Translations under genes and position numbers: made by a program
The notes under the pieces: model-generated
Database searches by the model: none
Told to the model about the DNA's origin: nothing
Seen by the model: only the letters and a program-made list of their open reading frames with translations
Source of the DNA: Erysipelotrichaceae bacterium
GTDB taxonomy: Bacteria > Bacillota_I > Bacilli_A > Erysipelotrichales > Erysipelotrichaceae
Assembly: GCA_003446295.1 (NCBI GenBank)
Contig: DMBB01000357.1
Location: 1 to 14,878, forward strand
Direction of reading: 5' to 3'
DNA length: 14,878 nucleotides
Shown here: one piece after another, positions 152 through 12,934 of the stretch
Numbering within the stretch: the first letter of the stretch is position 1
Layout of the letters: each line of letters begins with the position of its first letter

Positions 152-157
152 TCATAC

Positions 158-359
158 AAAGCTTTGATCAGGACACGTTTCCCTGATTGTTTCTGCCCAG
201 AGAACAGACGGCCGGTGCGAGTCTGTCAGAACGTTTCGGAAATACTACCTGTGAGCCGCACCCGAAAGGGAAAGCCGTAATCCGCGTTAAGGAACAGAGG
301 CAGCGTATGCTGTGAATAAAGGTGGTACCACGGTCTTCGTCCTTTGGCGGGACTTTTTT
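158..359 (+). promoter_or_regulatory. T-box riboswitch, threonine type, upstream of thrS
   Basis: This untranslated leader binds uncharged tRNA-Thr and lets transcription continue into thrS when threonyl-tRNA is scarce. The T-box core, GGTGGTACCACGG, lies at 321-333 and includes the TGGT (323-326) that pairs with the free tRNA acceptor end. A small hairpin CAGC-GTAT-GCTG (301-312) sits just before it, as Stem III does in T-boxes. Upstream, CAGAC (205-209) pairs with GTCTG (221-225) around a loop containing GGTG, resembling the distal part of Stem I. The specifier region has ACT (244-246) followed by ACC (247-249), both threonine codons, which agrees with the thrS gene downstream. I have not folded the leader, so the Stem I boundaries and the 5' end are approximate. 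Confidence 0.93.
339..359 (+). terminator. T-box terminator of thrS leader
   Basis: GTCC (339-342) pairs with GGAC (350-353) and is followed by six T residues (354-359). The stem is short for an intrinsic terminator, but it sits directly after the T-box core, where the regulated terminator belongs. It competes with the antiterminator that uncharged tRNA-Thr stabilises. Confidence 0.7.
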
Positions 360-2217: not shown

Positions 2218-2505
2218 ATGGGAAGCGAGCGTTTTAATGTGAATCACATTCAGGTGCAGATGGCAATGGTGATCAAACTGCAGTCCCTGCAGAGAGACGG
2301 TCTGCCTGCATTGACGTATCGCAATCTGGAAGAGTATATCTGCAGAAATCTCTGGGCTGATAAAACGCCTAGATCTCTGCATGTTGCCGTGAACGATGTC
2401 CTGTCTGTCAAAGCGGAGGATATCGTCCGTTTCCTGGCTAAGGAAGCTGCGGCGGCTCGCGGCAGCAGTCTGGAAGAATTCTCAGACGTAATTGGAGGAA
2501 AGTAG
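2218..2505 (+). CDS. comN: ComN-like post-transcriptional regulator
   Basis: This small cytoplasmic protein has 95 residues and no signal peptide or membrane segment. It resembles the ComN (YrzD) family, which in Bacillus subtilis regulates late competence messenger RNA after transcription and is encoded beside secDF. The supporting segment is residues 39-75: an aromatic/Leu-rich helix (EEYICRNLW), then TPRSLHVAVNDVLSVKAEDI, which has the family's basic-Pro-Arg and 'NDxLSVK' character. The start is ATG 2218, 6 bases after GGGAG (2207-2211). The stop lies 5 bases before secDF, and the secDF ribosome-binding site overlaps the end of this gene, so the two are probably translated together. Family assignment rests on the remembered motif plus gene order; the cellular role in this organism is unknown. 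Confidence 0.65.
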   Translation: MGSERFNVNHIQVQMAMVIKLQSLQRDGLPALTYRNLEEYICRNLWADKTPRSLHVAVNDVLSVKAEDIVRFLAKEAAAARGSSLEEFSDVIGGK

Positions 2506-4804: not shown

Positions 4805-4833
4805 AGAGCGGCCGGAAACGGCCGCTCATTGTT
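4805..4833 (+). terminator. Probable terminator after secDF
   Basis: GAGCGGCCG (4806-4814) pairs perfectly with CGGCCGCTC (4819-4827) around a GAAA tetraloop, an unusually stable 9 bp hairpin starting 6 bases after the secDF stop. The following ATTGTTT is only partly T-rich, so termination may be incomplete. The hairpin could also protect the 3' end of the secDF messenger while some transcripts continue into the HAD gene. Confidence 0.6.
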
Positions 4834-4847
4834 TAGAGGTATCTATT

Positions 4848-5516
4848 ATGACTGAGATCAAAGCTGTACTGTTTGACTGCGACGGACTGATGTTCGATAC
4901 GGAACGCATCTCACAGCAGATGTGGACCGATGAGGCAGAACAGTGCGGAGTAACGCTTCCGCCGGATTTCTTTGTCAGGATCACCGGAGGATCAAGTGAC
5001 GAAGACCGTGCATACATCCATTCAATTCCCGGATTCGACAAACTGTTCAGTGTCCGCTCACGCAGGCGCTTTGACAATGAATACTGGAAACAGTACGCGC
5101 CGGATGGCCTGAATAAACCCGGACTGACAGAACTGTTTGCCTGGCTGAATGAACATGGCTACAAGATCGCAATCTGTTCTTCCAGCAGAAGAACTTATGT
5201 TGAAACACTGATTTCAACGGTAACAGGCGGTCTGAAATATGACGAGATCATATGCGGCGATATGGTCACAAAAACCAAGCCGGATCCTGAGATATTCCTG
5301 ACGGCAGCCGGAAAGCTCGGAATCAGTCCCGAGCACTGTCTGGTGCTGGAAGACAGCAGACAGGGGATCTTTGCGGCTGATGCCGCAGGCATGCATTCCT
5401 GCTTCATTCAGGACACGATCATACCGGATGAAGCAATGCGTGCAAAAATACAGAATGAAAGGCATGACCTGAAAGAAGTGATCGATCTTCTGGAAGAGTG
5501 GAACAGACAGTGCTGA
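4848..5516 (+). CDS. HAD-superfamily phosphatase, beta-phosphoglucomutase-like
   Basis: This 222-residue cytoplasmic haloacid-dehalogenase-type hydrolase probably acts on a small phosphorylated metabolite. Motif I is LFDCDGLMFDT with the nucleophile D10 and acid/base D12. Motif II is CSSSRR near S111-S112, motif III is K144 in TKTKPDPEIF, and motif IV is LEDSRQG with E168/D169. An alpha-helical cap lies between motifs I and II (about 17-90), which places it in the subfamily that includes beta-phosphoglucomutase and many sugar-phosphate phosphatases. The substrate cannot be read from the sequence. The start ATG 4848 lies 8 bases after AGAGG (4835-4839). It follows the secDF hairpin by about 20 bases and is 51 bases upstream of murL. 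A link with the cell-wall genes is possible but unproven. Confidence 0.88.
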   Translation: MTEIKAVLFDCDGLMFDTERISQQMWTDEAEQCGVTLPPDFFVRITGGSSDEDRAYIHSIPGFDKLFSVRSRRRFDNEYWKQYAPDGLNKPGLTELFAWLNEHGYKIAICSSSRRTYVETLISTVTGGLKYDEIICGDMVTKTKPDPEIFLTAAGKLGISPEHCLVLEDSRQGIFAADAAGMHSCFIQDTIIPDEAMRAKIQNERHDLKEVIDLLEEWNRQC

Positions 5517-5567: not shown

Positions 5568-6953
5568 ATGGACTACAACGACCTGAGACTCCAGCATCTG
5601 GTTTTCTATTATCATGATTATGAAATCATAGAAGAAGAACATGAGATACAGGTGAGATTTGATTTTGAGATCGGATCCCTGTCCCATTTCAATCCCTCGT
5701 TCCTGATCCAGAAGCCGGAAGGCACTGACGGTGCCGCGGAACTGGAGCTGTTCAGGGAAGCTGCTTTTTCGCTTGGTCTTGCAGAGCTCGTCAGCTATTG
5801 GAAACTGACATGCTCGCCTGTGGTGATCGTTGAAGCAGGTCATCTTGATGAAGCACAGATCAGATGGTGGAAAAAACTGTATTTCAACGGACTCCGTGAT
5901 TTTTTCCGGACCAACGGCATCACTGCGGATCCGGAAGGGTTTATGGACCTGAGATCGGCCGGCAGAAATATCGGAGGCAGACCCGACGCGCGCACATACC
6001 ACGGAAACCTGATCCCGGTCGGAGGCGGAAGGGATTCCTTTGTATCCCTGGAAGTCCTGTCTTCCATGAAACAGGAAAACCATGCCTTTGTCATCAATCA
6101 TGTCATGTCAGCCATACACAGCGCTGAAGCCGCCGGATACCGGGGCAGCAGGCTGATCGTTGCCGAACGGACACTCGATGCCAGAATGCTTGACTTCAAC
6201 AAGCAGGGCTATCTGAACGGAACGACACCCTTCAACGCGCTCACCGCATTCGCAGCCTATCTGACGGCTGTTGTCTACGGCAAGAAATATATCTGCCTTT
6301 CGATCGAAGCAGGCAGCGAAGAAGATGACGATGACGCACTGGGCCAGATGTATGCCAAAACCTTTGGTTTTGAGAAAGACTTCCACGCCTACACAGAGAC
6401 ATATCTGAGCCGCGATATCATGTGCTTCTCCTTGCTGAGACCGTTAAGCGAGCTTCAGATCACAGGGATCTTCTGCAATTACCGGCAGTACCACAGGGTG
6501 TTCCGTTCCTGCAACGTCGGCTCCAAGACCGAGACATGGTGCACGCACTGCGGCAGATGTCTGTATGTTGGAGTCATGCTGTCGGCATTCCTGGACGATG
6601 CACAGCTGAACGCGGTCTTCGGAAGGGATATGCTGAATGATCCCGGAATGCTGGATCTTTTTGAACAGCTGACAGGCATGAACGAACCCGTTACGCAAGC
6701 CTCTGCAGGTACTTCGAGAGAAGAGATCAACACTGCTGTATGCATGTCCGTAAAGGCTCATCTGAAGGCAGGAAAGGAGCTTCCGCTGCTGTACCGCCAA
6801 TATGCTTCGACACCGAATTATGAATACTACCGTGACCGTACCGGGCTCCTGAATGCATGGAATGATGACAACCTCGTGCCGGAAGAATACCGGAAACTGG
6901 TCAGAGAAAAACTGGAGGAGATCCATTATGAATCTGAAAACATGGACAGATGA
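5568..6953 (+). CDS. murL: UDP-MurNAc-L-Ala-L-Glu epimerase MurL (predicted)
   Basis: MurL, first characterised in Xanthomonas, uses ATP to invert the terminal L-Glu of UDP-MurNAc-L-Ala-L-Glu to D-Glu, giving the normal peptidoglycan intermediate. The 461-residue product is cytoplasmic, with no membrane segment. It carries a PP-loop-like nucleotide motif, PVGGGRDSFVSLE (150-162), with Arg where I would expect Lys in GGGKDS. A Cys cluster follows: C315, then CTHCGRC (C325, C328, C331). The strongest support is the next gene, a MurD-type ligase of the MurD2 kind, which overlaps it by 26 bases; this pair defines the pathway. The ATG at 5568 has only a weak AAAGAG (5554-5559) ahead of it. A TATACT at 5524-5529 could be a -10 box, but no good -35 is seen. 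The assignment combines motif memory with context; an uncharacterised PP-loop enzyme is the alternative. Confidence 0.75.
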   Translation: MDYNDLRLQHLVFYYHDYEIIEEEHEIQVRFDFEIGSLSHFNPSFLIQKPEGTDGAAELELFREAAFSLGLAELVSYWKLTCSPVVIVEAGHLDEAQIRWWKKLYFNGLRDFFRTNGITADPEGFMDLRSAGRNIGGRPDARTYHGNLIPVGGGRDSFVSLEVLSSMKQENHAFVINHVMSAIHSAEAAGYRGSRLIVAERTLDARMLDFNKQGYLNGTTPFNALTAFAAYLTAVVYGKKYICLSIEAGSEEDDDDALGQMYAKTFGFEKDFHAYTETYLSRDIMCFSLLRPLSELQITGIFCNYRQYHRVFRSCNVGSKTETWCTHCGRCLYVGVMLSAFLDDAQLNAVFGRDMLNDPGMLDLFEQLTGMNEPVTQASAGTSREEINTAVCMSVKAHLKAGKELPLLYRQYASTPNYEYYRDRTGLLNAWNDDNLVPEEYRKLVREKLEEIHYESENMDR

Positions 6954-8232
6954 ATTCGCAGGACGCAGAATCCTGATCTGGGGATACGGCAGGGAAGGAA
7001 AGTCGACTTATGAATGGATCCGCCATCTGTGTCCGGATCTGCCGCTTGATATCACGGATGGAGGAAAAGGGCTGGATGACGCACGCAGATCGACTGTCAA
7101 TACAAGGTGCATCCGTGAGGATGAGACTGACTTCGGCAGCTATGATCTGATCATGAAATCACCGGGTATCGTACTGAAGCCCGGAATGGGAACGGAACAT
7201 ATCTGCTCACAGACAGAACTGTTTCTCAAACATCTGGGAGACCGTACGATCGGCATTACCGGCACCAAAGGCAAATCAACGACGACATCGCTGATCGCAG
7301 CTGCCCTGGCAAAAAAGTACCGTGTGCATCTGGTCGGCAACATCGGCATTCCGTGCTTCAACGCGCTGTATGATTTCGGTGATGAGGACCTTGCTGTATT
7401 CGAAATATCCTGCCACCAGCTGGAATATACCGAATACTCCCCGCATATAGCGGTCTATCTGAACCTTTTCCAGGAACATCTTGATCACTACGGAAGTTTT
7501 GAAGCATACGGAGAAGCGAAAAATCACATTTACCGGTACCAGAAACCGGGGGATATCGTGATGCTGGGCGATATGCTGGAACAGCAGAAGAAGGAATGCC
7601 CGAATGCATTGATCATCGGAAAGGATATCTATGCCGATGGAAATATCCTGCATGCAGAAAATGCTTCAGTGGAAGTGAAGGAAACAAAACTGATCGGCGC
7701 TCATAACTATACCAATCTGGCAGTAGCCTATGAAACTGCACATAACCTGTACGGAGTTTCAGATGCGGACTTCCTGGAAGCCGTCAGGGATTTTGAACCG
7801 CTGGCTCACAGACTGCAGGATCTCGGTGTGCACAAAGGGATCAGATTCGTTGATGATTCGATCTCAACGATCGGTCAGGCATGCATCAAAGCGCTGGAAT
7901 CACTGCCTCTGACAGACAGTGTTCTGATCGGCGGAATGGACCGCGGAATCGATTACACAGATCTGCGCGAATACCTGGCTGAGCGCAAAGACCTGCACGT
8001 GATCTTCATGTACGCTTCAGGCAGAAGGGTCTATGAAGAAATGCAGGCAGAACATACGGTACATGAACATATGTACTATGCAGAAGACCTGAAGGAAGCT
8101 GTCAGAAAGGCTTACGAGGTCACATCAGAAGGCCATATCTGCCTGCTGTCACCGGCCGCAAGCAGCTATGATCATTTCAAAAACTTCGAAGAACGTGGAG
8201 ATATTTTCAGAAAGCTGGCGTTTGAGTTATGA
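6928..8232 (+). CDS. murD2: UDP-MurNAc-L-Ala--L-Glu ligase MurD2 (predicted)
   Basis: A Mur ligase of 434 residues that would add glutamate to UDP-MurNAc-L-Ala using ATP in the cytoplasm. The N-terminal Rossmann region contains WGYGREGKST (18-27). The ATP loop is TGTKGKSTTT (111-120), the family His is in AHRLQ (293-297), the lysine carbamylated in MurD aligns with K198 (EAKNH), and the C-terminal signature is LLSPAASSYDHFKNFEERGD (406-425). Two places differ from ordinary MurD: DSKATN is DSISTI (310-315), and the Lys of GG.DKG is R339 (GGMDRG). Both lie where MurD holds D-glutamate, fitting a ligase with changed amino-acid preference. The start ATG 6928 lies 8 bases after GGAGGA (6914-6919), inside murL, so the two are probably translationally coupled. 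Ordinary MurD is the alternative, but the murL neighbour argues for MurD2. Confidence 0.8.
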   Translation: MNLKTWTDEFAGRRILIWGYGREGKSTYEWIRHLCPDLPLDITDGGKGLDDARRSTVNTRCIREDETDFGSYDLIMKSPGIVLKPGMGTEHICSQTELFLKHLGDRTIGITGTKGKSTTTSLIAAALAKKYRVHLVGNIGIPCFNALYDFGDEDLAVFEISCHQLEYTEYSPHIAVYLNLFQEHLDHYGSFEAYGEAKNHIYRYQKPGDIVMLGDMLEQQKKECPNALIIGKDIYADGNILHAENASVEVKETKLIGAHNYTNLAVAYETAHNLYGVSDADFLEAVRDFEPLAHRLQDLGVHKGIRFVDDSISTIGQACIKALESLPLTDSVLIGGMDRGIDYTDLREYLAERKDLHVIFMYASGRRVYEEMQAEHTVHEHMYYAEDLKEAVRKAYEVTSEGHICLLSPAASSYDHFKNFEERGDIFRKLAFEL

Positions 8233-12711: not shown

Positions 12712-12934
12712 TGTAAATTTGATGACAAAGAGATCTCCGGCGGACGACGGAAAAGCGACGGTGGCATGGTGAAAGCACCGGTCTGAACCCTGAGAAAGAC
12801 ACTTTCGAGAAGATGTCCTGAACGATCAGTAGGGACGTCCGCAGACCTGCGTTAAAGGATCAAGCGCATGACTATGTCATGAACTAAGGTGGTACCGCGC
12901 AAACAGCGTCCTTGGATCAAAGGGCGCTTTTTTT
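12712..12934 (+). promoter_or_regulatory. T-box riboswitch, His (and possibly Asp) type, upstream of hisS-aspS
   Basis: This leader reads the charging of tRNA and controls hisS and aspS. The T-box core AAGGTGGTACCGCG lies at 12886-12899, with TGGT (12890-12893) for the tRNA acceptor end. A perfect 6 bp hairpin CATGAC-TAT-GTCATG (12867-12881) directly before it fits Stem III. The specifier region reads GACAC at 12798-12802: CAC (12800-12802) is a His codon and overlaps GAC (12798-12800), an Asp codon. These are exactly the amino acids of the two genes downstream. The specifier lies after a GGTGG-containing hairpin (about 12759-12782) and a GAAC, as in Stem I. I did not fold the full leader. 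T-box identity is certain from the core; dual reading is inferred. Confidence 0.94.
12905..12934 (+). terminator. T-box terminator of hisS leader
   Basis: AGCGTCCTT (12905-12913) pairs with AAGGGCGCT (12920-12928), 9 bp with one T-G wobble, followed by seven T (12928-12934). It lies 5 bases after the T-box core and is the regulated terminator that uncharged tRNA prevents from forming. Confidence 0.92.

What the first reader, a model, noticed from the sequence alone, without database searches (positions are those of the whole stretch)
5568..8232. MurL-MurD2 pair: an epimerase route to D-glutamate in peptidoglycan of a Gram-positive
A PP-loop/Cys-cluster protein (GGGRDS at 152-157; C315, C325, C328, C331) overlaps by 26 bases a MurD-type ligase with altered glutamate-site motifs. 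This is the pairing known from Xanthomonas MurL/MurD2, where L-Glu is added first and then inverted on the UDP-MurNAc dipeptide. Here it sits in a classic Gram-positive secDF-recJ-apt-rel neighbourhood. If the genome lacks glutamate racemase, this pair would be the only D-Glu source and essential.
Basis: partly seen in the sequence, partly recalled or inferred. Interest (0 to 1): 0.75.

Follow-up and report, generated by a model that had tools for sequence, protein, structure and literature searches.

The report
Alternative D-glutamate route for cell walls
A Firmicute bacterium appears to carry a two-enzyme detour for the D-glutamate of its cell wall, adding ordinary L-glutamate first and flipping it afterwards; the route is known from Xanthomonas and a few other bacteria, and in a group of this bacterium's relatives it seems to stand in for the usual racemase.

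Summary
5568-6953 encodes a MurL homologue (NCBIfam E 6e-46, below that model's Xanthomonadales-only cut-off). 6928-8232 encodes a MurD-type ligase overlapping it by 26 bases. The ligase has Glu and Arg at E. coli positions 182 and 348, which set L-glutamate use in Xanthomonas MurD2, plus Ile at 319. Ile319 and Arg348 occur in 103 of 103 ligases next to murL; Asp182, Lys319 and Lys348 occur in 40 of 40 MurDs sampled from murI-bearing relatives. In 195 genomes of the family, murL (32) and murI (142) never co-occur. So this is very probably the MurL/MurD2 route: a new member of a known kind, and not the first in a Gram-positive, since actinobacterial pairs were assayed. The window's genome is not held. 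Its four nearest tested relatives carry a D-amino-acid-transaminase-like gene, so 'only D-Glu source' is unproven. Two extras: the MurL model resembles QueC-family enzymes, above all QatC; and six family genomes, one a Bulleidia, keep a MurD2-type ligase with no detectable murL or murI, leaving their D-glutamate supply unexplained.

The parts
5568..6953 (+). [quoted passage not shown]
   Evidence: NCBIfam NF041275 156.8 bits, E 6.1e-46, profile 55-385 of 447, cut-off 700 not reached; AlphaFold model pLDDT 90.6; QueC/QatC-like fold
6021..6038 (+). GGGRDS, PP-loop-type motif (residues 152-157)
   Evidence: G153, G154, D156, S157 in 67 of 67 chosen sequences; resembles the SGGxDS motif of QueC and QatC described in PMC13329287 and PMC13279940
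6510..6560 (+). Cys cluster C315, C325, C328, C331, predicted Zn site
   Evidence: 67 of 67; the region aligns with the Cys motif of E. coli QueC in hhalign (E 0.0017, probability only 15%)
6928..8232 (+). [quoted passage not shown] start at 6928 by homology and ribosome-binding site)
   Evidence: TIGR01087 268 bits; E/I/R at E. coli positions 182/319/348
4848..5516 (+). HAD-superfamily phosphatase upstream of murL; role unknown
   Evidence: PF13419 E 1.6e-25; by inspection a similar ORF lies upstream in L012, L095 and L096 and a shorter one in L092, but none in L011 and L094
8229..9818 (+). recJ, overlapping the end of murD2 by 4 bases
   Evidence: TIGR00644 E 9e-100, 334.5 bits, below its cut-off 396.9

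Best explanation
The pair makes the D-glutamate residue of peptidoglycan on the nucleotide precursor. The MurD2-type ligase joins L-glutamate to UDP-MurNAc-L-Ala. MurL then uses ATP, probably through a PP-loop active site of QueC type, to adenylate the alpha-carboxylate of that glutamate, epimerise C-alpha, and release the D-Glu dipeptide by hydrolysis. Shown here: gene identity, adjacency, diagnostic residues, exclusion with murI in the family, predicted fold. Inferred: the reaction, its direction, and that it is the main D-Glu source in this cell.
For: MurL profile match E 6.1e-46 over residues 60-385. A MurD-like ORF lies next to murL on the same strand in 104 of 110 MurL loci, window included and one locus held twice. 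E. coli positions: I319 and R348 in 103 of 103 MurL-adjacent ligases and E182 in 95 of 103, against D182/K319/K348 in 40 of 40 MurDs that I sampled from the 142 murI-bearing family genomes and in 16 of 16 from other loci without murL. The literature ties E197/R358 (E. coli 182/348) and loss of K319 to L-Glu use (PMC8788868). Of 195 family genomes, murL in 32, murI in 142 at E<=1e-15, both in 0. Each of the 32 has one MurD match at E<=1e-45, with up to 8 candidates scored per genome. MurI over cut-off in 0 of 28 chosen MurL-bearing genomes, Clostridia and Bacteroidales included; 8 of 14 control genomes. On the ligase tree the MurD2-type rows are split from the canonical ones with SH-aLRT 100 (quick method, no bootstrap).
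Against: No activity has been measured. The MurL match is far below the cut-off of a Xanthomonadales-only model. G001-G004 have a D-AAT-like gene (about 200 bits, cut-off 277), and so do 3 of the 32 MurL-bearing family genomes at E<=1e-30. R348 alone is not diagnostic: a D-Glu ligase structure (3lk7) has Arg there too, as has S. mutans MurD (PMC8788868); positions 182 and 319 must be counted with it. Eight of 103 MurL-adjacent ligases keep D182. murL stands without an adjacent ligase in L017, L019 and L038. Second MurDs with canonical residues occur in G005, G006, G017 and G028. The exclusion statistics are not corrected for shared ancestry.
Confidence: 0.88

Rival explanations
1. The pair works as stated but is not the sole source: a D-amino-acid transaminase also makes D-Glu, and the ligase accepts both enantiomers.
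For: G001-G004, the closest relatives tested, hold a 200-bit full-length D-AAT-like protein; the two examined (G001, G004) match D-AAT models best.
Against: It scores below the D-AAT cut-off; the one MurD found in each of these genomes has the MurD2 residues; MurL-bearing relatives G007-G013 give only low hits to the D-AAT model (under 50 bits, none in G010).
Confidence: 0.25
2. An aspartate/glutamate racemase of the PF01177 superfamily supplies D-Glu and the MurL homologue does something else.
For: PF01177 proteins occur in all three MurL-bearing genomes (G001, G004, G011); G001's is best matched by PRK10200, named aspartate/glutamate racemase.
Against: In the six PF01177 proteins examined, TIGR00035, PRK10200 or CuyB models score far above the MurI model, which matches two of them at about 43 bits (cut-off 147). 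The E. coli D-Glu auxotroph WM335 exists (PMC8788868) although E. coli has ygeA, the PRK10200-type gene (recalled). The ligases have L-Glu residues, and murL tracks them.
Confidence: 0.05
3. The first gene is a QatC- or QueC-like protein with a different substrate, next to an ordinary MurD.
Against: The sequence matches the MurL profile at E 6e-46, while PADLOC and Pfam QueC models touch only 2 and 1 of 67 members weakly; I see no qat-like neighbours in the ORF list (by inspection); the ligase residues are not ordinary.
Confidence: 0.04

Closest known systems
MurL / MurD2 of Xanthomonas oryzae (XOO_1319 / XOO_1320) and the assayed Micromonospora and Salinispora pairs
   Same: Homologous epimerase, adjacent ligase with E and R at the two specificity positions, no MurI over cut-off in the MurL-bearing relatives tested
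   Different: Distant: 157 bits against a 700-bit Xanthomonadales cut-off; Firmicute, in a secDF-recJ-apt neighbourhood; invariant Ile at the K319 position (the Xanthomonas residue there was not seen here)
QueC family: QueC, Cap9 and especially QatC of qatABCD defence
   Different: Sequence identity 10-16% in these alignments; no qat partners seen; expected substrate is a nucleotide-linked peptide; MurL occurs 0 times in the two QueC-family papers consulted
Canonical MurD + MurI
   Same: Same step in the pathway, homologous ligase
   Different: Sampled canonical ligases of the family have D182, K319, K348; no MurI co-occurs with murL in 195 family genomes

Membership tests
MurL epimerase | Profile match to the curated MurL model | tested here: met
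   NF041275 E 6.1e-46, residues 60-385 of 461
MurL epimerase, Xanthomonadales equivalog NF041275 | Score over the curated cut-off of 700 bits | tested here: not met
   156.8 bits; so it is a MurL homologue outside the xanthomonad subgroup. UniRef gives a Pseudobutyrivibrio relative (P0123) a name that begins like the MurL enzyme name (cut off in the listing)
MurL epimerase | Genetic pairing with a MurD2-type ligase | tested here: met
   Window overlap of 26 bases; 104 of 110 loci
MurL epimerase | Host lacks MurI and D-AAT | tested here: inconclusive
   Window genome not held; MurI over cut-off in 0 of 28 MurL-bearing genomes, but G001-G004 have a D-AAT-like gene
[quoted passage not shown]
   Needs enzyme assay
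MurD2 ligase | MurD family membership | tested here: met
   TIGR01087 268 bits, cut-off 212
MurD2 ligase | Glu and Arg at E. coli positions 182 and 348 | tested here: met
   Window E and R; changing both switched the specificity of X. oryzae MurD2 (PMC8788868)
MurD2 ligase | L-Glu substrate | not testable with these tools
   Needs enzyme assay
QueC superfamily (PF06508) | Fold with PP-loop motif and Cys4 Zn motif | tested here: met
QueC superfamily (PF06508) | Sequence profile membership | tested here: inconclusive
   PF06508 matched 1 of 67 members at E 0.019; hhalign with E. coli QueC E 0.0017, probability 15%

The most novel reading that the evidence does not exclude
Six family genomes, one of them Bulleidia sp. 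zg-1006 (a genus whose species B. extructa shows a peptidoglycan wall), keep an L-Glu-type ligase with no detectable murL and no MurI; three of the six have no Asp/Glu-superfamily racemase at all, and five have no PF01063 transaminase. Either an unknown enzyme now inverts the glutamate, or their stem peptide is built with L-Glu or with imported D-Glu. In parallel, MurL is a QueC-family carboxylate-activating enzyme related to QatC, which would extend that superfamily's chemistry to peptide epimerisation.
Probability: 0.3. Interest if true: 0.82.

Novelty: new member of a known kind. Interest (0 to 1): 0.55.

Why it matters
It places the MurL/MurD2 route in a branch of Firmicutes. The two reviews consulted name proteobacteria and actinobacteria, and low-similarity orthologues in a fungus, cyanobacteria and an amoeba. 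It gives a residue signature (E182, I319, R348) for spotting the ligase. It suggests re-examining anaerobes reported to lack murI, such as Roseburia intestinalis (PMC7478625, passage; not tested here). The predicted QueC/QatC-like fold gives a structural basis for the proposed adenylation mechanism. The MurL-less Bulleidia case makes an open question directly testable.

Tried and rejected

What I saw of papers: PMC8788868 parts 1 and 2 of 3; PMC5808125, PMC7478625, PMC13279940 and PMC13329287 passages; PMC12786226 passages and one section; PMC5885031 search listing only. The original discovery papers (Feng 2017, 2019) were not read.

Rows dropped or chosen before counts: ligases under 380 aa or in pieces (L058, L097, L098) were left out of the residue table; L097 was also left out of the tree, which used 74 of 125 sequences (E. 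coli included). L101 repeats L011. The 16 'no murL' ligases include L130/L131, which lie in genomes (G005, G006) that have murL elsewhere. MurI was counted at E<=1e-15; 83 of the 142 pass the curated cut-off. One search used 28 of the 80 loci. The 67 sequences of A3 and the 40 murI-bearing genomes were my choice. The ORFs and of alignment A2 run from stop to stop, so some carry short false N-terminal stretches. G045, the positive control, is one of the sequences from which that profile was made.

Full report
OBSERVATION. 5568-6953 encodes 461 aa with GGGRDS at 152-157 and Cys at 315, 325, 328, 331. The ligase ORF is open from 6853, but homologues and a GGAGGAG ribosome-binding site point to ATG 6928, giving the stated 26-base overlap. 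murD2 and recJ overlap by 4 bases. A terminator-like stem at 4806-4827 lies between secDF and the HAD gene (a consensus scan), so HAD-murL-murD2-recJ may be one transcript (inference).

IDENTITY OF THE FIRST GENE. The only strong NCBIfam match is the MurL model NF041275: 156.8 bits, E 6.1e-46, residues 60-385. The model is named for Xanthomonadales and its cut-off is 700, so this is a MurL homologue outside that subgroup. For a Pseudobutyrivibrio relative UniRef gives a name that begins like the MurL enzyme name, so automatic annotation seems to have reached Firmicutes already.

IDENTITY OF THE SECOND GENE. It is a MurD (TIGR01087 268 bits). The minireview of Ogasawara and Dairi (PMC8788868, parts 1 and 2 of 3) states that E197 and R358 of X. 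oryzae MurD2 (D182 and K348 in E. coli MurD) set L-Glu specificity, that the double change to the E. coli residues gives a D-Glu ligase, and that K319T in E. coli MurD or K330T in S. mutans MurD lets L-Glu in. The window ligase has E, R and I at these places. In 103 ligases next to murL, I319 and R348 are invariant and E182 is in 95. In 40 MurDs that I sampled from the 142 murI-bearing genomes of the same family, and in 16 other MurDs from loci without murL, all have D182, K319, K348. Arg348 alone is not diagnostic: the D-Glu ligase structure 3lk7 has it too. The isoleucine at 319 is a natural counterpart of the laboratory substitutions at that position.

GENOME CONTEXT. The window's genome is not held, so relatives were used. 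The closest (85-87% in MurL) are three Solobacterium MAGs, two of them from goat and dairy-cattle gut by their titles. In a sample of 195 genomes of the family of Lactimicrobium massiliense (G011), murL occurs in 32, murI in 142 at E<=1e-15, 83 of them over the curated cut-off, both in none, neither in 21 (Fisher p 6e-23, not corrected for ancestry). Each of the 32 has one MurD at E<=1e-45, up to 8 candidates per genome being scored. In 28 MurL-bearing genomes across Erysipelotrichaceae, Clostridia and Bacteroidales no MurI passes its cut-off, against 8 of 14 control genomes. murL is followed by a MurD-like ORF in 104 of 110 loci; two of the six exceptions stop near a contig end (L023, L036) and one has only 1.3 kb downstream (L074). 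In one of the remaining three, L017 in G015, a ligase with the MurD2 residues lies elsewhere in the genome. In a wider phylum sample the route looks rare: 1 of 398 genomes, the seed itself (possibly an undercount).

LIMITS. D-AAT-like genes (about 200 bits, cut-off 277) occur in G001-G004, and 3 of the 32 family genomes have one at E<=1e-30 (200.8 to 252.7 bits). Of the 12 weak MurI-model hits, three were examined and are aspartate-racemase-like (PRK10200 or CuyB type). G005 and G006 carry a second, canonical MurD on short contigs, and two Bacteroidales, G017 and G028, also do; three Clostridia genomes (G016, G019, G021) have a further MurD-like ligase of another residue type. So 'sole source and essential' is plausible in much of the family but is not shown for the window.

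ORPHAN LIGASES. Of the 21 family genomes with neither murI nor murL, six hold a ligase of MurD2 score (G059, G103, G153, G218, G211, G086). A broader MurL profile finds nothing in them at E<=1; G045, whose MurL is part of that profile, scores 684 bits. Five have intact ligases, all with E182, I319, R348; the sixth is in two pieces. In G059, G103, G153 and G218 the ligase sits between secDF (with or without the HAD gene) and recJ, where murL would lie (genes named by inspection). On the ligase tree the five intact ones sit inside the MurL-linked branch, needing three changes (quick method); the one of G211 groups with Pseudobutyrivibrio. G059's ligase is identical to a protein named for Bulleidia sp. 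zg-1006, whose longest contig is 1,545,033 bases, about the size of the whole genome, so a gap in assembly is unlikely. PF01177 racemases were found in G153, G218 and G086 and not in G059, G103 and G211; PF01063 transaminases in G086 alone of the six. A related species, Bulleidia extructa, has a visible peptidoglycan wall (PMC12786226, passages and one section); MurI occurs 0 times in that paper. How these cells obtain D-Glu is unexplained. Chlamydia DapF, described in a title as also having glutamate racemase activity (PMC5885031, search listing only), shows that unexpected enzymes can do it; DapF was not searched here.

VERDICT. Known in kind, but well supported in a new branch, with a clean residue signature, a plausible enzyme fold and an open puzzle next door.

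Noticed in passing
L092, L093, L094, L095, L096, L097: MurD2-type ligases without murL in six family genomes, one of them with a ligase identical to that of Bulleidia sp. zg-1006; no murI found, and in three no PF01177 racemase at all.
   Followed up: partly
window 155-347 and 12713-12916, + strand: T-box leaders (RF00230, 95.5 and 96.4 bits) upstream of the ORFs that look like thrS and hisS.
   Followed up: no
window 4848-5516: HAD phosphatase between secDF and murL; by inspection also upstream of murL or of the orphan ligase in L012, L095, L096, but not in L011 or L094.
   Followed up: no
L169, L175, L130, L131: A second MurD with canonical D182/K319/K348 residues in MurL-bearing genomes G017, G028, G005, G006; either real or binned contamination.
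   Followed up: partly
L167, L171, L173: MurD-like ligases with N at E. coli 182, I or A at 319 and K at 348 in three MurL-bearing Clostridia genomes: a third residue pattern of unknown specificity.
   Followed up: no
L141 248-2184, L145 1465-3393, L146 251-2178: A PF01177 racemase gene (CuyB type in G011 and G218; not profiled further in G153) lies next to an ORF of about 400 aa; the one of G011 matched no NCBIfam model at 1e-10.
   Followed up: no
window 2218-2505: Small ORF matching PF13797 Post_transc_reg (40 bits) just before secDF.
   Followed up: no
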